The notes under the pieces are model-generated. The model searched no databases, had not been told where the DNA came from, and saw only the letters and a list, made by a program, of their open reading frames with translations. A stretch of 64,000 bases of DNA from Cryobacterium algoricola (GTDB lineage: Bacteria; Actinomycetota; Actinomycetes; Actinomycetales; Microbacteriaceae): positions 372,001-436,000 of the forward strand of contig NZ_SOFG01000011.1 of the NCBI RefSeq assembly GCF_004402485.1, in the 5' to 3' direction. Made by a program: the position numbers and the translations under genes. Shown here in pieces: positions 49,259 through 57,053 of this stretch; positions within the stretch are counted from its first letter, which is position 1, and each line of letters opens with the position of its first letter.

Positions 49259-50908
49259 TCAGGCGAGCGGGAGCGACACCCGGAACTCGGTGCGGCCCGG
49301 CCGGCTCGACACCGACACCTCGCCCTGGTGCGCGGTCACGACCGCCTGGACGATGGCGAGGCCGAGCCCGGTGCTTCCGGTGCCCCGGAACCGCGAGCTG
49401 TCGCCGCGGGCGAAACGCTCGAACAGGGTCGTCTGGAGGTTCGCCGGGATGCCGGGGCCGTCATCCGTTACCGTCACGATCGCCCGGCCGTCCTGCTCGG
49501 ACAAAGCCACCTCGACGGTCGTGTCGGGCGGGGTGTGGATGCGCGCGTTCGCGAGCAGGTTGGTGAAGACCTGGTGCAGCCGGGGCGTGTCGCCGATGGC
49601 CTGGATCGGCTCGTCGGGGAGCTCGAGGTTGAGCACCCGGTCGCGGCCGGCGGCGTGCGCGTCGCTCACGACGTCGACGAGCAGGCTCGTGAGGTCGACG
49701 GTGCCGTGCTCGAGTTCGCGGCCCTCGTCGAGGCGGGCGAGCAGCAGCAGGTCCTCGACGAGCCCGGTCATCCGCACGGACTCGGACTCGATCCGGCCGA
49801 GGGCGTGCAGGGCGTCCGGCGGCAGCTCCTGGCCGGAGCGCCGGGTGAGCTCGGAGTAGCCCCGGATCGAGGCGAGGGGCGTTCGGAGCTCGTGGCTGGC
49901 ATCCGCGACGAACTGCCGCACCTTGTTCTCGCTCGCCTGCCGGGTCTCGAGGGCCAGGTCGACGTGGTCGAGCATGCGGTTGAGCGCGGAGCCGACCTGG
50001 CCGACCTCGGTGCGGGGGTCGGTGTCCGCGGCGGGGACCCGGTCGACGAGGCTGACCTCGCCGCGGTCGAGCGGGAGCTCGGAGACGCGGGCGGCCGTTG
50101 CCGTGACACGCTGCAGCGGGCGGAGGGCGAGGCGCACGATCCACATCGCGAGGATCGCGACGACGATGATGCCGACGAGGGAGACGACGCCGATGATCAT
50201 GGCGAGCTGTGTCGCAGTGCCGTCGACCGTGCTGAGCGGGAGGCCGACGATCGAGAGGGTGCCGGTGCGGCTCGAGCTCGCGAGGATCCGGTAGCTGCCG
50301 ACGTCGCCGCCGAGGTCGACGGTGACGGGCCGGGCGGTTCCGGTCTGGCTCGCGAGGATGTCGGCCTTCTGCACGAGGAGGTCGACCTGGTGAGCGGTGA
50401 GCGGGACGATCGTGCCGGTGTCGTCGGTGTAGCCGGCGGTGAGGGTGGAGTTGTAGAAGACGAGGGCGAGCGTGCCCGGCTGGCCGGGGCCGTTGAGGAT
50501 GACGCTCGCGGAGGGAACGAACACCGGCAGCGTGGTGCCGGGGTCGTTGTCGTTGTCGCGGCGCCCCTCGAGCATCGAGTGCGACCGTTCCGCGGCCGAG
50601 CTCACCTGCTGGTCGAGAGCGGACAGCAGGTTGGCGCGCAGCACCGTGACGCTCACGACCCCGATCGAGACGCTCACGAGGGCGAGCAGGCCGACGACGG
50701 CGAGCACGAGCCGGCGGCGCAGCGTCCAGGGCGCGCGGGCGCGGCGCCGCAACCACTGCGGGCGGCGGAGCCACTGCGGTCGGCGCGACGGATGCTGCCG
50801 GCCGGCCGCACCGCTCGGGTGGGCCCGGCTGGTCGGGCCGAACGGGTCGACCTGGTCGGTCGGGTCGGTCGGGTCGACCGGGCCCGGCTGGTCGGTCGGC
50901 GTCATCAC
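49259..50908 (-). CDS. Sensor histidine kinase (HAMP, HisKA, HATPase)
   Basis: Membrane kinase of 549 residues. A Pro/basic cytoplasmic tail precedes helix 1 (about 68-90), a sensor region of about 165 residues outside, helix 2 (LAMIIGVVSLVGIIVVAILAMWIV), and HAMP. The phosphorylated His is in VADASHELRTPLASIRGYSEL. The ATP site has NLLANARIHTP (N box), TVTDDGPGIP (G1) and GTGSTGLGLAIVQAV (G2). It overlaps its response regulator by ATGA. The signal is unknown. Confidence 0.92.
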   Translation of the reverse strand: MMTPTDQPGPVDPTDPTDQVDPFGPTSRAHPSGAAGRQHPSRRPQWLRRPQWLRRRARAPWTLRRRLVLAVVGLLALVSVSIGVVSVTVLRANLLSALDQQVSSAAERSHSMLEGRRDNDNDPGTTLPVFVPSASVILNGPGQPGTLALVFYNSTLTAGYTDDTGTIVPLTAHQVDLLVQKADILASQTGTARPVTVDLGGDVGSYRILASSSRTGTLSIVGLPLSTVDGTATQLAMIIGVVSLVGIIVVAILAMWIVRLALRPLQRVTATAARVSELPLDRGEVSLVDRVPAADTDPRTEVGQVGSALNRMLDHVDLALETRQASENKVRQFVADASHELRTPLASIRGYSELTRRSGQELPPDALHALGRIESESVRMTGLVEDLLLLARLDEGRELEHGTVDLTSLLVDVVSDAHAAGRDRVLNLELPDEPIQAIGDTPRLHQVFTNLLANARIHTPPDTTVEVALSEQDGRAIVTVTDDGPGIPANLQTTLFERFARGDSSRFRGTGSTGLGLAIVQAVVTAHQGEVSVSSRPGRTEFRVSLPLA

Positions 50909-51651
50909 GCGGTTTTCAGCATGTACCCCGCACCGCGCACGGTGTGGATCATCGGCTCGCGCCCCGCATCGATCTTCTTGCGCAGGTAGGAGATGTAGAT
51001 CTCGACGACGGAGGACTTGCCCCCGAAGTCATAGCTCCAGACCCGGTCGAGGATCTGGGCCTTGCTCAGCACGCGGCGGGGGTTGCGCATCAGGAAACGG
51101 AGCAGTTCGAATTCGGTCGCGGTGAGCTCGATGGCGTCGCCGGCGCGGGAGACCTCGTAGCTGTCCTCGTCGAGGGTGAGGTCGCCGACGGAGATGCGCG
51201 GGTCGACGGAGTCGGACACGGCCAGGGTCGAGCGGCGGATCAGGCCGCGCAACCGGGCGACGACCTCTTCGAGGCTGAACGGCTTCGTGACGTAGTCGTC
51301 GCCGCCTGCGGTCAGGCCGGCGATGCGGTCGTCGAGGGAGTCTTTGGCGGTCAGGAAGAGCACGGGCGTTTCGTAGCCGTCGGCGCGCACCCGCTGCAAC
51401 ACCTGCAGGCCGTCGATGTCGGGCAGCATGATGTCGAGCACGATCGCGTCCGGCCGGAACTCGCGGGCGATCGTCAGCGCCTGGCGTCCCTCGCCGGCGG
51501 TGCGCACCTCCCAGCCCTCGTAGCGGAGGGCCATCGAGAGCAGATCCGTGAGCGTGGGTTCGTCATCGACGACGAGCACTCGAATGGGACTTCCGTCGGC
51601 CTTGTGGAGACGCGGCCCGCGGGTCGAGTGGTCAGTTTCACGTGTGCTCAT
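50905..51651 (-). CDS. OmpR-family response regulator
   Basis: DNA-binding response regulator of 248 residues. The receiver has acidic VVDDE at 27-31, phospho-acceptor Asp73 in VLDIMLPD, FLTAKDS and VTKPFS. The C-terminal winged helix includes LTATEFELLRFLMRNPRRVLSKAQILDRVW and VVEIYISYLRKKID. First gene of the regulator-kinase operon, divergent from the YqaJ-like gene with 128 bp between. Resembles TrcR/PhoP-like actinobacterial regulators; targets unknown. Confidence 0.93.
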   Translation of the reverse strand: MSTRETDHSTRGPRLHKADGSPIRVLVVDDEPTLTDLLSMALRYEGWEVRTAGEGRQALTIAREFRPDAIVLDIMLPDIDGLQVLQRVRADGYETPVLFLTAKDSLDDRIAGLTAGGDDYVTKPFSLEEVVARLRGLIRRSTLAVSDSVDPRISVGDLTLDEDSYEVSRAGDAIELTATEFELLRFLMRNPRRVLSKAQILDRVWSYDFGGKSSVVEIYISYLRKKIDAGREPMIHTVRGAGYMLKTA

Positions 51652-51779: not shown

Positions 51780-52508
51780 ATGGGGAGAGTGACCGATACC
51801 CTGCTGCCGCTTTTCGAGCCGGCAGGGTCACCGGCAGGGTCACCGGCAGGGTCACCGGCAAAAGCCTCAGCGGTTGCCGCGGCGGCAGCATCCGCGCTGC
51901 GCACGCCCGCGATCGCACCGCACCTGCTCCGTATCGTGGCCGATTCCACGGACTGGGCGGCCTGGATGCGCGCCCGCAACCAGGGCATCACGGCCACGGA
52001 TGTCGCCAAGCTCGCGACCCCCAAGTCGGTGCAGAACGCGGCCAACGACAAGATGAACGGCAGCAACTTCGGCGGCAACACGTACACCGATCACGGTCGC
52101 GCCCGCGAGCCCGTGATCGCCGCCTGGGTGCTCGAGAACTACGGCATCGAGCCGAGCACGACGCTGTTCCATGCCGCCGACCACCGCCGGCACCTCGCGA
52201 CGCCCGATGGAGTGGGCACGGATGCCCGGACGCTCGAACTTTCGGAGATCAAGACGACGAACAAGGCGTGGCGCAGCATCCCTCGTTCCTATATGCGGCA
52301 GGTCTGGTGGCAGCAGTATGTGCTCGGCGCCGACCGGACGCTGCTGGTCTGGGAGCAGCACCGGGACTTCGTGCCGATCCGGTCGGAGCCGGAGTGCCGG
52401 TGGATCGAACGCGACGAGGACCAGATCGCGATCCTGGTCGGCTACGCGAACCAGCTGATCGACGTGCTCAACGCAATGGCGACCCGGGCGCAGCAGGCTC
52501 GGGCGTAG
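51780..52508 (+). CDS. YqaJ-like (lambda-exonuclease fold) nuclease
   Basis: Protein of 242 residues from ATG 51780; GTG 51789 is an alternative that fits a leaderless transcript. The YqaJ/RecE-type core begins WAAWMRARNQGITATDVAKLAT and includes GRAREPVIAAWVLENYG. ATPDGVG followed by ELSEIKTT gives the Asp and Glu-x-Lys of PD-(D/E)XK nucleases. No RecT annealing protein, phage or conjugation gene is near. A (Gly-Ser-Pro-Ala)3 repeat is in the N-terminal tail. The last 41 bp overlap the convergent SipW-like gene. Confidence 0.75.
   Translation: MGRVTDTLLPLFEPAGSPAGSPAGSPAKASAVAAAAASALRTPAIAPHLLRIVADSTDWAAWMRARNQGITATDVAKLATPKSVQNAANDKMNGSNFGGNTYTDHGRAREPVIAAWVLENYGIEPSTTLFHAADHRRHLATPDGVGTDARTLELSEIKTTNKAWRSIPRSYMRQVWWQQYVLGADRTLLVWEQHRDFVPIRSEPECRWIERDEDQIAILVGYANQLIDVLNAMATRAQQARA
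51819..51854. repeat. Three 12-bp tandem repeats in the YqaJ-like gene
   Basis: CCGGCAGGGTCA occurs exactly at 51819, 51831 and 51843, with a partial fourth. In frame it encodes the repeated Ala-Gly-Ser-Pro of the N-terminal tail. Confidence 0.9.
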
Positions 52509-53196
52509 CCGCGATCCTCGTGGCCGCGGCAGCCCTGGCGCGACGGCGCTTGCGCAGCGCGGACACGGCGCCGCTCGCGAACATGTACCCCGTGTAGGCG
52601 AACAGCAACCCGGCGATGACGGGCACGATCCAGCTGCGGCTCTGGCCGTTGACGGCGTTGTTCACCCAGCCGACCCACGGCACCGAGTACCAGAGCCGTC
52701 CCTGGATCTGCACCGGGAGCACCTGATCGGCGTCGGCGACGCTGTTGTTGTCTCCTTTGAATGTGAACGTGCGCCCGCCGGCGGAGCTCGAGCTGATCGC
52801 GGTGACGCGATGAGTGATCACCCCCGGCACTCCCGAGTGGATCTGGTACGTCACGACGTCGCCGATCCGGATGTCGTCCGGGGCGACCGGACGCACGATG
52901 ATGAGCGTTCCGGGCGGCAGGGTGGGCTCCATCGAGCTGGTCAGCACGGTGAGCGGTGTCGACCCCGTGACCTTCGGCACCACGATCAGCAGCAGCGCGA
53001 GGGCGACGACGAGAAGCAGGATCGCGCCGCTGACCGCGAGGCCGAGGTAGTGCAGCAGGCTCTTCTCGGCCGGTTCTACGGCGGCGGGCACCCCGGGCAC
53101 GGATGCCTCCGGTCCGGGCAGCTCGCGGTCGAACGACTCGGGTGCGTCGCCGACGACCGGCGTCAGCAGCAGTGGATCGAGCTGGGATCGGGTCAT
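52468..53196 (-). CDS. SipW/Sec11-type signal peptidase I
   Basis: Membrane protease of 242 residues. A 45-residue acidic/Pro-rich tail precedes one N-terminal helix (about 48-75). Catalytic Ser88 is in LTSSMEPTLPPG. The general base is His129 in GVITHRV rather than lysine, which marks the ER/SipW type; KGDNNSVAD (147-155) supplies the Asp region. A second helix near the C-terminus (IVPVIAGLLFAYTGYMF) is also SipW-like. In Bacillus SipW processes the fibre proteins TasA and TapA. Here the four upstream genes encode candidate substrates. Overlaps the LAHTG-protein gene by ATGA. Confidence 0.88.
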   Translation of the reverse strand: MTRSQLDPLLLTPVVGDAPESFDRELPGPEASVPGVPAAVEPAEKSLLHYLGLAVSGAILLLVVALALLLIVVPKVTGSTPLTVLTSSMEPTLPPGTLIIVRPVAPDDIRIGDVVTYQIHSGVPGVITHRVTAISSSSAGGRTFTFKGDNNSVADADQVLPVQIQGRLWYSVPWVGWVNNAVNGQSRSWIVPVIAGLLFAYTGYMFASGAVSALRKRRRARAAAATRIAATPEPAAPGSPLR

Positions 53197-54038
53197 TCCC
53201 GGTCCTCCTCAGGTCGGCGACGGCGGGCGAGCAGCAGGAAGAGACCGACCCCGAGCAACAGCCCGCCGACGACCAGCACGGGAGCGGGCGGCTCGACCCC
53301 GGTGTGGGCGAGGAATCCGGTGCCCGCGACGGCGGCGAACGTCTTCGTAGTGGGCGTCGGTGTTCCCGGCAGCACGGGGACGACCGTTCCCGGGTCGTCG
53401 CAGGCGGACGCCGCGAACGGGCCGCCCTGGGCATCCCGCATCGCCACCAGCAGCCCGAGACCGGCGCTCGCTCCCTGATCGACAGTGCCGGAGACATCCG
53501 CCATGGTGAACGTCACGATGAGCTTCATCGTGCCGCCGGCCGCGATCGGCTGGGACGGGACCACGATTCCGCAGCTGTCGAGCGCGCGCAGGGTGCGGGA
53601 GAGGGTGTCGCCGGTGCCGGAGTTCCAGGCGGAGAGGGTGACGTGGTCGGCGTATCCGCCGGCCGGGAGCAGCACGTCGTGTGCGCTCACCCGGACCTCG
53701 GCCGGGGCGGCGGTCGGGTTGCGCACCCACAGGGTGGCCTGCTGGGAGCCGCGCGGGATGAGCAGGCCGAGCCCGTCGAAGAGGCCGGCGCTGAGCGTCG
53801 TCGCGAAGTGCGTGCCGTCGGTGCTGAGGAGCAGGTCGACAGGGGCGGTCGGTGCGGCGGTGACTGTCGGTGTCGAGGTCGGGGTCGAGGTCGCCGTGTT
53901 CGCGTGCGCCGGCGTTGCGACGGCGGCGAGCCCGAATACGGCGGCCAGCGCGGCAACGCTGGCGGCGATCCGGATAGCTACCGTCACTCGGCCCGGTCCG
54001 AACGCCGGCGACGGAGTTGCAAACGGGCGCATCGTCAT
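53193..54038 (-). CDS. LAHTG-anchored surface protein of the SipW operon
   Basis: Protein of 281 residues. Start at ATG 54038, 2 bp after the ricin-lectin gene. Signal peptide ends ATPAHA-N near residue 50. A Thr/Pro linker leads to a beta-rich domain (APVDLLLSTDGTHFATTLSAGLF, ATLWVRNPTAAPAEVRVSAHDV), which looks like a SipW-linked or DUF916-like fold. The C-terminus has LAHTG (243-247), a hydrophobic helix and ARRRR, a sorting signal of the type used by class E sortases. It probably attaches the secreted fibres to the wall; no sortase gene is nearby. Confidence 0.8.
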   Translation of the reverse strand: MTMRPFATPSPAFGPGRVTVAIRIAASVAALAAVFGLAAVATPAHANTATSTPTSTPTVTAAPTAPVDLLLSTDGTHFATTLSAGLFDGLGLLIPRGSQQATLWVRNPTAAPAEVRVSAHDVLLPAGGYADHVTLSAWNSGTGDTLSRTLRALDSCGIVVPSQPIAAGGTMKLIVTFTMADVSGTVDQGASAGLGLLVAMRDAQGGPFAASACDDPGTVVPVLPGTPTPTTKTFAAVAGTGFLAHTGVEPPAPVLVVGGLLLGVGLFLLLARRRRPEEDRE

Positions 54039-54040
54039 CG

Positions 54041-55354
54041 TCAGCCCACGTTCGTGAGCGTGAAGGCCTGGGTAGCGCTGCCGACAATACACGTCTTCGC
54101 GACGACTTGGATGTCCCCTTGTGCGGTGAGGGTGTTGACGTTGTCCAGGCACTTGTTCGTCTGGACGTTCTTGATAGTAAAGGTGCCGTTGCCGCCCGTG
54201 ATCGGCACGACCGACCAGATCTGGCTCGAGGAGCCATCAAAGGTCTGAATATCCGCGTTGACATTCCCCGTCCCGGTGAGGTCCCAATACCGGTTGGTGA
54301 CATATTTTGCGCGGATCGTGTAGTTCGTCCCGGAACCGAGCACGAACTGCCAGGCCTGGTTGTCAAAGGACGTTGCTTTGCAGCCGAAGAAGATCAGCAA
54401 GGTACCGCTCGCAGTCAGTTCCTTCTCACCGTCGATGCACGTTTCGGTTCCGGCGATCTTGACCTTGTACCAGGCCGAGCCACTAATGCCACTGGTGCTT
54501 GTACCGATCGACGCCGTCGCCGGAGAGGCATTGCCATTCGAATCGATGGCCACCACATAGTAGGAGTAACTCGTCCCGACGTTGAGTCCGGTATCGACGT
54601 AACTCAGTGCGGTGAGCGAGGTCACGGTTGCGATGGGTGTGCTCGTCCCGACGCGATACACCTGATACCCGGCGACGGTGCTCGCATCGGCCGGAGCTTT
54701 CCACGAGACCGTCAGGCTGTGGTCGGTCAGGGTGGTGACCGCAAGGCTGAGCGGCGTCATGCTCGTCAGGCTCTGCGTCGCGGTGTCGGAATTGCCCGTG
54801 GTCGCCCAGTTCTTGCCGACCGTTGCACTCAGAGTCGAGGTGGCGTTCAGCGAGCCAGAGGCGGAGGTGAAACGGAGCGCCGGCGTGATGCTGGTGCTGA
54901 CGCAATAAACCGTCGAGGCGCCCGCGGCGAGAGTGCCGGTCAAGGGAGCAGTCGGCGTCCAATTCTGCGCTCCCGGCACCGCTGCGCTCACGTTTACGGG
55001 ACATGGCACGGTGGAGACCCATGCCTGCACGGTGATCGCCGACGCTAACCCGCCCGAGGCTGCGAACGCGAGTGTGTATTGCGCCGGCACCGACCCATTG
55101 TTCTTGACCGTGACGGGCGTCGTCGCGGACAACGCGCTTGCCGGGCTGGAGAGATACACGTGCGCCAGAGCACTAAAACCCGATTGCTTCACGCTCAGGG
55201 TTCCGGCCGCAACAGAGGCCGACAGCGTTGAAGGCTTGGCGGTCCAGGTTGCCTGGGCGACACTCGTACCTGCGAGCGTCAGAAAGAGGGCCAGGGCGAG
55301 CGTCAGCATCCGCTTGGGCGAGCGGATGCTCCGGGTCGGGCGCGTCGCGGTCAT
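54041..55354 (-). CDS. SipW-type exported protein with fibronectin III and ricin-B lectin domains
   Basis: Protein of 437 residues (ATG 55354; a GTG one codon earlier is possible). An N-terminal alternate signal and TasA-like start (LALFLTLAGTSVAQATWTAKPSTLSASVAAGTLSV) lead to a beta domain to about 190, a fibronectin type III domain (about 198-287, LTVSWKAPADASTVAGYQVYR) and a ricin-B beta-trefoil (about 295-437). The trefoil shows QxW/F motifs QAW, QIW and QAF, one per repeat. The lectin would bind a glycan on a surface or matrix. The combination with a SipW-type start is unusual. Third gene of the operon. Confidence 0.8.
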   Translation of the reverse strand: MTATRPTRSIRSPKRMLTLALALFLTLAGTSVAQATWTAKPSTLSASVAAGTLSVKQSGFSALAHVYLSSPASALSATTPVTVKNNGSVPAQYTLAFAASGGLASAITVQAWVSTVPCPVNVSAAVPGAQNWTPTAPLTGTLAAGASTVYCVSTSITPALRFTSASGSLNATSTLSATVGKNWATTGNSDTATQSLTSMTPLSLAVTTLTDHSLTVSWKAPADASTVAGYQVYRVGTSTPIATVTSLTALSYVDTGLNVGTSYSYYVVAIDSNGNASPATASIGTSTSGISGSAWYKVKIAGTETCIDGEKELTASGTLLIFFGCKATSFDNQAWQFVLGSGTNYTIRAKYVTNRYWDLTGTGNVNADIQTFDGSSSQIWSVVPITGGNGTFTIKNVQTNKCLDNVNTLTAQGDIQVVAKTCIVGSATQAFTLTNVG

Positions 55355-55359
55355 CACGG

Positions 55360-55956
55360 TCAGGCCTGGATCCCATCGATGGTGACGCCGAAGGTCGTGG
55401 ATAGCTGGTCTACGGCCGGCTGGGGCGCGTCATACGAGAGCGCCACCGACACGCAGAGCACGATGGAAGCGCCCACCGGGACGGTCGCGCCCAGAGCGGC
55501 AACGGCAGGGGTGGTGCCGACGACCGCGGACCAGGAGGGTGCAGGCACTGCCGGGCACGCCCCGACCGCGAGGCCGACGGTCAGCCATGAGGAGACGGGA
55601 ATCGCCGGACTCGGAGCTGTCAGTCCCGCAACGCGGATGGCGAGGGGTACGTCACCGGTGTTGGTCACGGTGACAGGGGCGCTGATCGTTGCGCCCGGGT
55701 AGAGCGGGGTGGTCGGCAGGCTCAGGGGCGACACGCTGACGGTAGCGGTGCCGGACGTGATCGTTGTAGCTGCGGAGACCGGAGCGCTCGTATTGAGGAA
55801 CGCATAGGAGCCGCCGGCGCCAAGCACCGCCAGGATCACTGCGGCGGTCGTGGCGGCCACTGCAGATAGGACGGACCGGAGCGTGAGCCGCGGGAGAAAT
55901 TTGGCCCCCGCAACCTTGTCGGCAGCGATGAAATCCCACTTTCGGGTCCTAGTCAA
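55360..55956 (-). CDS. SipW-type (TasA-like) exported protein
   Basis: Protein of about 198 residues. A TTG at 55956 with AGGGGTG upstream is my start; an ATG at 56025 is open but lacks a ribosome-binding site. A long basic start (RTRKWDFIAADKVAGAKFLPRLTLR) precedes one helix and the SipW pattern LGAGGSYAFLNTSAPVSAATTITSGTATVSV. The rest is a beta domain with TVTNTGDVPLAIRVAG, as in CalY/TasA-type proteins. It ends 2-5 bp before the ricin-lectin gene, so the two are coupled. Confidence 0.7.
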   Translation of the reverse strand: MTRTRKWDFIAADKVAGAKFLPRLTLRSVLSAVAATTAAVILAVLGAGGSYAFLNTSAPVSAATTITSGTATVSVSPLSLPTTPLYPGATISAPVTVTNTGDVPLAIRVAGLTAPSPAIPVSSWLTVGLAVGACPAVPAPSWSAVVGTTPAVAALGATVPVGASIVLCVSVALSYDAPQPAVDQLSTTFGVTIDGIQA

Positions 55957-56007
55957 AGCTTCGTCACCCCTATCCGCGCATGCCCTTGAGAACAGCCTCG
56001 AACCTGC

Positions 56008-56045
56008 GGCCGGCGCACAATGCACAAACTCAAGGTGCGCCGGCC
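56008..56045 (-). terminator. Hairpin after the first fibre-protein gene
   Basis: GGCCGGCGCAC (56008-56018) and GTGCGCCGGCC (56035-56045) pair perfectly over 11 bp with a 16-nt loop, 7 bp after the stop of the first gene. No U-run; it could set a high ratio of first to later products. Confidence 0.6.
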
Positions 56046-56051
56046 CGAGAA

Positions 56052-56642
56052 CTAACCCTGGGTGATGGTGATGGCGAGGTCACTCAGTTTCACAGAGCCG
56101 AGCTTGGTTGCCGCCTCCGAGCTGTCGCCAGCAGTCCCGTTCTTGGGGAATTTGACGGTTACCGTCACCACGGCATCGACACCATTGATTCCAGTGGCAC
56201 CTGGAGTAACGGTGTAAGACGAGCCGGATCCGGAGAATCCCGTAACACCGGACAAGGCAATTGACGCCGAGTTCGTCAGGTAGGTCGACAAGGCCAGGTC
56301 CGCTGGCGCCGTCAACGCTGGCGAAACCGAGACCGGAGCGAACGAGCCGGGAGCGAGAGCAAGTGTGGCGGTGAGGTTGTCACCGGTCGCAGTAATCTTC
56401 ACCGTCTTCGTGTAGGTGAGAGAGTCGCCCGGAACTGCCTTAAACGTGCTCGGATCGATGCTCTTGCCACCGCTCGTCCAGGCGCCGACCCCGCTTGGTG
56501 TGATGACGAGCGTGCCTGCGGTGATCGTCGCGCCACTGCCCGCCGCAGCACTTGAGTTCCACTGCGCGAGGGTTCCCGCACCGCCGAGGAGGAGCGCCAC
56601 GCCGACCGCGCCGGCGATGGAGCCTTTGAGAAGCTTGTTCAT
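56052..56642 (-). CDS. SipW-dependent (TasA-like) fibre subunit candidate
   Basis: Protein of 196 residues with an alternate-type signal: MNKLLKGSIAGAVGVALLLGG, then AGTLAQWNSSAAAGSGATITAGTLVI, the motif pattern of proteins matured by SipW-type peptidases. The mature part is beta-rich and small, with TYTKTVKITATGDNLTATLAL and a Gly/Ser/Thr-rich end, and no cysteines. Its first place in the operon and the hairpin behind it suggest that it is the major subunit. A fibre role is inference from TasA/SipW systems. Confidence 0.8.
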   Translation of the reverse strand: MNKLLKGSIAGAVGVALLLGGAGTLAQWNSSAAAGSGATITAGTLVITPSGVGAWTSGGKSIDPSTFKAVPGDSLTYTKTVKITATGDNLTATLALAPGSFAPVSVSPALTAPADLALSTYLTNSASIALSGVTGFSGSGSSYTVTPGATGINGVDAVVTVTVKFPKNGTAGDSSEAATKLGSVKLSDLAITITQG

Positions 56643-56845
56643 GATGGATCCTTTTCGACGCCTCGAAGGGCATCAGGGTAGTTGCAGGCCGAGATTCGGC
56701 CGACCGATGGGAAGGACAGTTCGTTCGTTGCCCGGGCGGGAGAGATCGCGCCACTTCGGGTGCGGCGCGAAATTCCAGCACGGGCAACGGGTCGCCGAAT
56801 ACAGGCCAAAGGCACACCAGTCGCCTGGTGGACGCTCGACTCGAA

Positions 56846-56887
56846 CGGTCCCCCTAAATGAGGACTTCGGTCCCCCTTTATGTGGAC
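56846..56887. promoter_or_regulatory. Two tandem 20-bp direct repeats upstream of the fibre operon
   Basis: CGGTCCCCCTAAATGAGGAC (56846-56865) and CGGTCCCCCTTTATGTGGAC (56868-56887) differ at three positions and are 22 bp apart, two helical turns. Each has GTCC and GGAC ends. The 411-bp gap holds no other clear signal; the sites are about 205 bp before the fibre operon and 167 bp before the oxidoreductase gene. Confidence 0.65.
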
Positions 56888-57053
56888 AGACTACGACCGC
56901 GAGAGAGAGCAAATCCAGACCCCGACGCCCCCAAGGTGAGGCACAATGAGCGTTTCCGCACCCCCAGATCGAGTCACGTTGCTAACGGGATCTGCCGGGT
57001 GACCGAGGGTGTTTCAGCTGTCCGCCGGCTGCCGGCCGGGAGACAATGGAGAC

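What the first reader, a model, noticed from the sequence alone, without database searches (positions are those of the whole stretch)
52468..56642. SipW/TasA-like surface-fibre operon with a ricin lectin and a wall anchor
Seen: five tightly coupled genes: two SipW-type small beta proteins, a third with fibronectin III and a three-lobed ricin-B lectin, an LAHTG-sorted protein, and a Ser/His signal peptidase of SipW type. Known: Bacillus SipW matures TasA/TapA amyloid-like fibres of the biofilm matrix. Inference: a complete actinobacterial fibre system in which the lectin is an adhesive tip and the LAHTG protein the wall base. I do not know a description of this exact combination.
Basis: partly seen in the sequence, partly recalled or inferred. 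Interest (0 to 1): 0.68.

Follow-up and report, generated by a model that had tools for sequence, protein, structure and literature searches.

The report
SipW surface fibre with swappable lectin tip
This bacterium carries a five-gene kit that probably builds a protein fibre on its surface with a sugar-binding tip and a wall-anchored base, and its relatives appear to exchange the tip separately from the fibre part.

Summary
Five tightly packed minus-strand genes (52468-56642) encode A (NCBIfam TIGR04089), B (small beta protein), C (beta domain, FN3, ricin-B trefoil), D (LAHTG wall anchor) and E (SipW-type Ser/His signal peptidase). In 57 genus genomes C is in 27 and strong E in 28, with all 27 shared. 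Order-wide profiles tie B, and weakly A, to the archaeal donor-strand pilus protein AbpX (E 7.5e-5 and 0.044); TasA is below significance. A and C have clear SipW-type cleavage sites, B a partial one, D an ordinary A-x-A site. D's domain is related to B's (hhalign 96.5-96.7%). The strongest new result is mosaic evolution: C's fibre domain and lectin have different histories in two independent triples; one relative has six FN3 repeats, one lacks the lectin, one fuses B to C. Best model: C tip and initiator, B adaptor, A shaft, D acceptor base. Fibre formation, polarity and glycan binding are inferred; structure predictions failed. New variant of a known kind.

The parts
56052..56642 (-). Gene A, 196 aa, proposed shaft subunit. 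Residues 1-26 signal peptide (56642-56565), cleavage TLA|QWN, then donor-strand-like start and AGTL strand
   Evidence: TIGR04089 119.4 bits, cut-off 60; Trp at P2' in 48 of 49 order-wide rows; order-wide profile's best PDB hit AbpX, E 0.044, weak
55360..56025 (-). Gene B, small beta protein, proposed adaptor; start GTG 56025 or TTG 55956; cleavage SYA|FLN
   Evidence: Order-wide profile hits AbpX E 7.5e-5 and 3.6e-4, TasA 0.13-0.15; TIGR04090 20.1 of 60; hhalign to C N-domain 97.8%
54041..55354 (-). Gene C, 437 aa, proposed tip: signal peptide (cleavage AQA|TWT), fibre-type beta domain about residues 36-197, FN3, ricin-B trefoil
   Evidence: Pfam; Trp at P2' in 18 of 18 rows
54518..54754 (-). 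FN3 domain of C (residues 201-279), proposed stalk
   Evidence: PF00041 39.8 bits; six repeats in relative L124
54062..54469 (-). Ricin-B lectin domain of C (residues 296-431)
   Evidence: PF00652 32.6 bits, PF14200 47.4 bits; exchanged separately
53193..54038 (-). Gene D, 281 aa, proposed wall-anchored acceptor base; ordinary A-x-A signal peptide, Thr/Pro linker, beta domain, LAHTG tail
   Evidence: NF058582 29.7 bits; domain related to B, hhalign 96.5-96.7%, but no PDB fibre hit
53214..53312 (-). LAHTG sorting signal, transmembrane stretch and basic tail of D
   Evidence: TIGR01167 match in the genome search, 19.6 bits
52468..53196 (-). Gene E, SipW/archaeal-type signal peptidase, 242 aa, Ser88/His129
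   Evidence: TIGR02228 77.8 bits, cut-off 51.85; invariant Ser and His in 18 rows

Best explanation
A donor-strand-exchange surface fibre of the SipW/TasA kind, with an exchangeable lectin tip and a sortase-anchored base. Shown by sequence: E is a SipW-type peptidase; A and C (B less clearly) have SipW-type cleavage sites followed by donor-strand-like N-termini; A, B, C and D carry related beta domains (A-D weakest); D has a sorting signal and the genome encodes a class E sortase; C's lectin recombines separately from its fibre domain. Inferred: E cuts A, B and C and frees their N-terminal strands; C starts the fibre and carries the lectin outward on an FN3 stalk; B joins C to a polymer of A; D, which seems to lack a donor strand, accepts the last strand and is linked to the wall by sortase. 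Exchange of the lectin changes what the fibre binds.
For: All-or-none kit: C in 27, strong E in 28 of 57 genus genomes, 27 shared. SipW-type E beside A in 32 of 32 order-wide loci read. AbpX hits for B and A; [quoted passage not shown] Aromatic P2' in A 48 of 49 and C 18 of 18, the feature tied to the dedicated peptidase in TasA (PMC10269814, abstract and passages). TapA donates its N-terminus and can only start a filament (PMC10151520, passages). B-C fusion without C's signal peptide. Two mosaic triples. Six-FN3 stalk. Class E sortase 233 bits, cut-off 160. Strong D in 35 of 297 order genomes, 34 of them TIGR04089-positive.
Against: No structure: predictions failed. TasA itself is not significant and B misses the camelysin and BsaA cut-offs. 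Genus-level profile comparisons were weak for B-A (73.7%), B-D (42.9%) and C-D (37.3%). B has no aromatic P2' in 18 of 18 genus rows. D is missing or not found in 7 of 27 genus operons and in 10 of 32 order-wide loci; an L-x-x-T-G motif is absent in 1 of 13 genus and 4 of 29 order-wide D rows. One genus relative's C lacks the lectin and another's lectin frame is broken. At E 0.001 the D profile also matches 17 genomes without TIGR04089, mostly weakly.
Confidence: 0.5

Rival explanations
1. Lectin at the base: C is a TapA-like initiator at the cell surface whose ricin domain holds the fibre to the cell's own wall or capsule glycans; lectin exchange follows changes in those polysaccharides.
For: TapA starts filaments with a donated N-terminus (PMC10151520, passages); the B. 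cereus accessory CapP locates to the cell wall (PMC13082335, passages); four of 17 first-fetched genus operons lack a recognised D, so something else may anchor them.
Against: D is a dedicated anchor in most kits; six-FN3 expansion and loss or exchange of the lectin fit an outward adhesin better, though not decisively.
Confidence: 0.25
2. Secreted matrix set without an ordered fibre: A and B are biofilm matrix proteins, C a matrix lectin that links them to polysaccharide, D an unrelated wall protein.
For: BsaA and TasA are matrix proteins (PMC7395162, PMC9674648, passages); no structure was obtained here.
Against: Shared beta domain in D, B-C fusion and strong linkage of D with A.
Confidence: 0.18
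3. Sortase-polymerised pilus of the Spa/Fim kind.
For: D has a sorting signal and the genome has three sortase matches.
Against: No sorting signal or C-terminal membrane stretch is visible in A, B or C; none of the three sortases reaches the class C cut-off (best 40.7 of 160).
Confidence: 0.03

Closest known systems
Bacillus subtilis tapA-sipW-tasA (PMC9674648, PMC10151520, passages)
   Same: Dedicated SipW-type peptidase in the operon, aromatic P2' cleavage site, small beta proteins, initiator plus shaft logic, donor-strand assembly (there shown, here inferred)
   Different: Here an FN3-ricin subunit and a sortase-signal anchor with a related domain; peptidase last in the operon; TasA similarity not significant by sequence; tip modules recombine
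Clostridium perfringens sipW-bsaABCRSD (PMC7395162, passages)
   Same: SipW-dependent secreted polymer with accessory proteins; a sortase gene nearby was not needed for polymerisation
   Different: BsaA has no anchor and is mainly extracellular; no lectin gene was mentioned in the passages; B here is far under the BsaA cut-off
Bacillus cereus TasA-CalY-CapP (PMC13082335, passages)
   Same: Two TasA-like subunits plus a wall-located accessory, SipW processing
   Different: Described as sortase-independent; no ricin domain
Archaeal bundling pili AbpX (PDB 9sj2, 9rhp; PMC11952670, passage)
   Same: Best PDB matches of the order-wide B and A profiles; donor-strand fibre
   Different: Archaeal; no lectin tip or wall sorting known to me
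NCBIfam TIGR04089 'alternate-type signal peptide' proteins
   Same: Gene A is a member (119.4 bits)
   Different: The family entry names neither C and D nor a fibre role
Chaperone-usher pili with lectin tip (type 1 pili; recalled)
   Same: Donor-strand shaft, adaptor and lectin tip logic
   Different: No usher or chaperone seen; no homology claimed; donor polarity would differ

Membership tests
SipW/TasA fibre systems | SipW/archaeal-type Ser-His signal peptidase in the operon | tested here: met
   TIGR02228 77.8 of 51.85; Ser88 and His129 invariant in 18 rows; stricter Bacillus model NF046067 71.7 of 190 not reached
SipW/TasA fibre systems | SipW-type cleavage site (A, then aromatic at P2') | tested here: met
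   A 48 of 49, C 18 of 18; B 11 of 25 order-wide but 0 of 18 in the genus; D not of this type
SipW/TasA fibre systems | Subunit homologous to TasA/camelysin | tested here: inconclusive
   TasA E 0.13-0.15, AbpX 7.5e-5 with B profile; camelysin 17.0 of 22.5
SipW/TasA fibre systems | Donor-strand fibres | not testable with these tools
   Needs deep-alignment complex models or cryo-EM; single-sequence models had mean pLDDT 45.7 and 37.3
TIGR04089 | Score over curated cut-off | tested here: met
   Gene A 119.4 of 60; 18 of 18 genus rows match at E 0.1 or better
TIGR04090 (BsaA family) | Score over curated cut-off | tested here: not met
   Gene B 20.1 of 60; 5 of 18 rows match weakly
Ricin-B-type beta-trefoil lectins | Pfam cut-off and repeated QxW lobes | tested here: met
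   PF00652 32.6 of 29, PF14200 47.4 of 25.6; QAW, QIW, QAF. Sugar binding not tested
Sortase-anchored (LAxTG/LPxTG) proteins | Sorting signal and a sortase in the genome | tested here: met
   NF058582 29.4 of 27; class E sortase 233 of 160. That class E prefers LAxTG is recalled
Sortase-polymerised pili | Class C sortase and sorting signals on shaft subunits | tested here: not met
   Best class C score 40.7 of 160; none visible in A, B, C

The most novel reading that the evidence does not exclude
Actinobacteria have a chaperone-free counterpart of lectin-tipped chaperone-usher pili: SipW-released donor strands on tip, adaptor and shaft, an acceptor-only subunit fixed to the wall by sortase as terminator, and recombination that exchanges the lectin and the fibre domain of the tip separately, giving a natural library of adhesion specificities on one fibre platform.
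Probability: 0.35. Interest if true: 0.78.

Novelty: new variant of a known kind. Interest (0 to 1): 0.57.

Why it matters
If the model is right, the SipW/TasA fibre class, studied in Bacillota and with structural cousins in archaea, extends to many actinobacteria as a wall-anchored adhesion organelle with modular tips. It gives gene D and the C position a testable role. The two mosaic triples offer allele pairs with similar flanks and different lectins, so tip specificity can be tested directly. Ten searches of the held open-licence PMC library listed no paper that I recognised as describing this combination in actinobacteria; most subscription papers are not in that library.

Tried and rejected
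Single-sequence structure prediction of mature A and mature C gave mean pLDDT 45.7 and 37.3; I ran no fold search on them. Genus-level profiles of A and D found no fibre structure in the PDB, and B's only AbpX at 0.18. The genome-contig search with C gave one unrelated-looking weak locus, and viral-contig searches gave none for A and one weak locus for E. The first module comparison mixed domains of C because envelopes merged; its identities for C were replaced by fixed column ranges. The palindrome scan at up to 3 mismatches was barely above one base-shuffled control (28 against 15 in L038-L054); I rely only on exact matches and near-exact 6-base-spacer matches. Rejected: sortase-polymerised pilus. 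Not tested: amyloid staining properties. The two-component genes downstream were not pursued as the regulator.

Selections: order-wide neighbourhoods were read for 32 of the 57 TIGR04089-positive genomes; left out were the window's own genome, G013 (covered as a genus relative) and 23 with weaker, fragmented or lower-ranked hits. The D profile was partly built from those same loci, and that call scored only about 13 candidates per genome, so its sensitivity is uneven. Genus operons were chosen by having C. Informative sites are not independent, so the Fisher values are descriptive.
Full report
What is there. Five genes lie head to tail on the minus strand between 56642 and 52468. C begins 5 bases after B, D 2 bases after C, and E overlaps D by 4. 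A (196 aa) is a full-length TIGR04089 protein (119.4 bits, cut-off 60). B matches BsaA and camelysin models only weakly. C has a signal peptide, a beta domain without a Pfam name, one FN3 domain and a ricin-B trefoil, the named domains over Pfam cut-offs. D ends in LAHTG, a transmembrane stretch and a basic tail. E is a SipW/archaeal-type signal peptidase over its cut-off. B's start codon is uncertain.

Conservation in the genus. Among 57 genomes of the genus, C is found in 27 (E at most 1e-20) and strong E in 28 (E at most 1e-40, read off the table); all 27 C-bearing genomes have strong E, the extra one being G348 (Fisher 2e-15). In the 17 genus operons first fetched, chosen for having C, A, B and E were found in 17 and D in 13, one of these (L047) in two split frames. 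In the enlarged set of 27 operons including the window, A, B and E are in 27, a lectin match in 26 and D in 20. In L038 the E frame is also split.

A shared, variable site. The two genes that flank the kit in the window have matches in 57 and 56 of 57 genomes. Of 29 genomes without strong E, 28 have both on one contig; the distance between the matches is 56-455 bases in 21, about 7.5 kb in six and 3.2 kb in one. In two of the 7.5 kb cases that I fetched (L132, L137), the insert encodes what I read as a ROK-type regulator, an ABC transporter and sugar-metabolism proteins (no family scan). In several relatives the kit lies on the other side of the oxidoreductase-like flank gene (coordinates), so the site is shared but rearranged.

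Beyond the genus. TIGR04089 occurs in 57 of 297 genomes of the order, 33 of 94 genera. I read 32 of those 57 neighbourhoods. A SipW-type E (over 120 bits) is in 32 of 32 and a D match (E at most 0.01) in 22, four of them under 20 bits. A C with both fibre domain and ricin is in four, L091, L103, L108 and L110, from four other genera; each is over the RicinB_lectin_2 cut-off. In L090 the C position holds DUF11 and FN3 domains. In L104, L094, L107 and L111 it holds proteins with a similar start but no Pfam match at E 0.01. So the downstream module seems to vary at family level too.

Fold and mechanism clues. The order-wide B profile finds AbpX, an archaeal bundling-pilus protein, at E 7.5e-5 and 3.6e-4 for two entries, and TasA at 0.13-0.15. 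Sialidases follow AbpX at 0.011-0.016, so these matches are to a common type of beta domain as well. The order-wide A profile's best hit is AbpX, E 0.044, over positions 28-184. Profile comparisons link B with A (97.5%), with C (97.8%, over signal peptide and N-domain) and with D (96.5% with tail, 96.7% without). These are single-pair comparisons; with genus-only alignments B-A, B-D and C-D were 73.7, 42.9 and 37.3%. A-D is weaker (62.6%), and D finds no fibre structure. A has an aromatic at P2' in 48 of 49 rows and C in 18 of 18; B in 11 of 25 rows order-wide but 0 of 18 in the genus. Aromatic P2' hinders the E. coli general peptidase, and TasA, which has it, is cut by SipW (PMC10269814, abstract and passages). 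In TasA the residues right after the cut (28-38) form the donor strand, with F29, I32 and F39 making contacts (PMC9674648, passages). A, B and C each have such a segment before a strand of the type AGTL/SGTA; the likeness to TasA's own letters there is recalled. In D an ordinary A-x-A site is followed within a few residues, or after a Thr/Pro linker as in the window, by the first strand of the domain, so it seems to lack a donor strand. Hence the proposed roles: donors A, B and C, acceptor-only D.

Adjacency of B and C. In L045, B and C form one 608-residue frame in which C's signal peptide is gone and B's end runs into C's N-terminal strand. I read this as a natural fusion of fibre neighbours; it is one case.

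Mosaic evolution. Between the window, L038 and L039, sampled flanks are 82.5-95.7% identical in DNA and A's signal peptide 93.6-97.4%. In the mature A and B and in C's N-domain and FN3 the window is 46-71% identical to either relative, while the relatives are 78-92% identical to each other. At the lectin this reverses: window to L038 90.5%, L038 to L039 56.4%. Sites where two of three agree: N-domain, window=L038 15 and L038=L039 176; lectin, 157 and 17 (Fisher 7e-64). A second triple behaves alike: L047's C N-domain sides with L050 (109 sites, against 23 with L044) and its lectin with L044 (130, against 6) (Fisher 2e-43). Protein comparisons agree. L124 has six FN3 repeats where most have one, L125's C ends without a lectin, and L122's lectin frame is broken, which may be an assembly error (its genome is 83% complete). 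I take this as recombination near module borders; unequal rates alone would not make the grouping switch. No formal recombination program was run.

Anchoring. The genome holds three sortase matches: one class E well over its cut-off (233 of 160), one class F-like (97.8 of 166) and one class E-like (50.8 of 160); none reaches class C. No sorting signal is visible in A, B or C. In the 297 order genomes the D domain matches 62 at E 0.001, 45 of them TIGR04089-positive, and 35 at E 1e-8, 34 of them positive (my counts from the tables; Fisher for the latter 3e-28; both calls drew 297 genomes with matching handles where listed). An L-x-x-T-G motif is in 12 of 13 genus and 25 of 29 order-wide D rows; L045, L089 as trimmed, L103 and L110 lack it, and L045, L103 and L110 keep a hydrophobic tail with basic end.

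What is not shown. No fibre, polarity, processing or glycan binding is demonstrated. The lectin may face the cell's own glycans (rival at 0.25). Structure predictions failed. TasA membership by sequence is inconclusive: I file gene A in TIGR04089 and say of the rest that it probably works like the SipW/TasA kind.

Literature. Ten full-text searches listed no paper that I recognised as describing a SipW kit with lectin subunit and sortase anchor in actinobacteria. Of PMC7395162, PMC13082335, PMC9674648, PMC10269814, PMC11952670 and PMC10151520 I saw passages; all other papers only in search listings.

Verdict. Real, conserved, and better read as a donor-strand-type adhesive fibre than as an amyloid system. 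New variant of a known kind; interest 0.57, raised mainly by the exchange of tip modules.

Noticed in passing
Upstream of A in genus loci, e.g. L044:6425-6446, L048:6432, L129:9060: A 22-base palindrome GGACAGAC-N6-GTCTGTCC occurs exactly once in 14 of 27 genus loci, mostly just upstream of A, and with 1-2 mismatches in 6 more (in L052 upstream of B); 0 exact in the window, in 32 order-wide loci, and in 50 base shuffles. Possibly an operator of an unknown regulator.
   Followed up: partly
window 56845-56891, minus strand: Upstream of A the window has a half site GTCTGTCC and two copies of a motif ending AGGGGGACCG about 22 bases apart; L038 and L039 share at least the second copy.
   Followed up: no
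L043:13933-15996, L049:11616-13783, L051:239-2433: A second, smaller cluster of two A-type genes and one strong E-type gene lies near the main operon, without B, C or D matches.
   Followed up: no
L132 and L137 (G002, G344): The site between the two flank genes holds about 7.5 kb of regulator, ABC-transporter and sugar-metabolism-like genes in genomes without the kit; four more genomes have the same gap size.
   Followed up: partly
G031:C1:3883191-3883382 and G010:C10:427469-427708: Short E-like remnants with stop codons beside the flank genes in genomes without strong E, suggesting loss of a former kit.
   Followed up: no
L122:5795-7115 (G336): The lectin part of C is in a broken frame: decay, phase variation or assembly error cannot be told apart.
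   Followed up: no
L125:5910-7892 (G343): Two D-type frames in one operon whose C has no lectin.
   Followed up: no
L043, L044, L046, L047, L050, L051 (e.g. L046:11860-12363): A further weakly E-like signal-peptidase gene (about 30-38 bits) recurs near the operon in several relatives; the window's genome has one weak TIGR02228 match elsewhere, C21:542544.
   Followed up: no
window 49259-51651, minus strand: An OmpR/PhoB-type response regulator and, by eye, a sensor kinase lie close downstream; regulation of the kit is untested.
   Followed up: no
G000:C22:81777-81878 and G000:C25:99908-100000: The only two other LPXTG-type matches in this genome at E up to 0.1; the first is in a 2819-aa open frame.
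   Followed up: no
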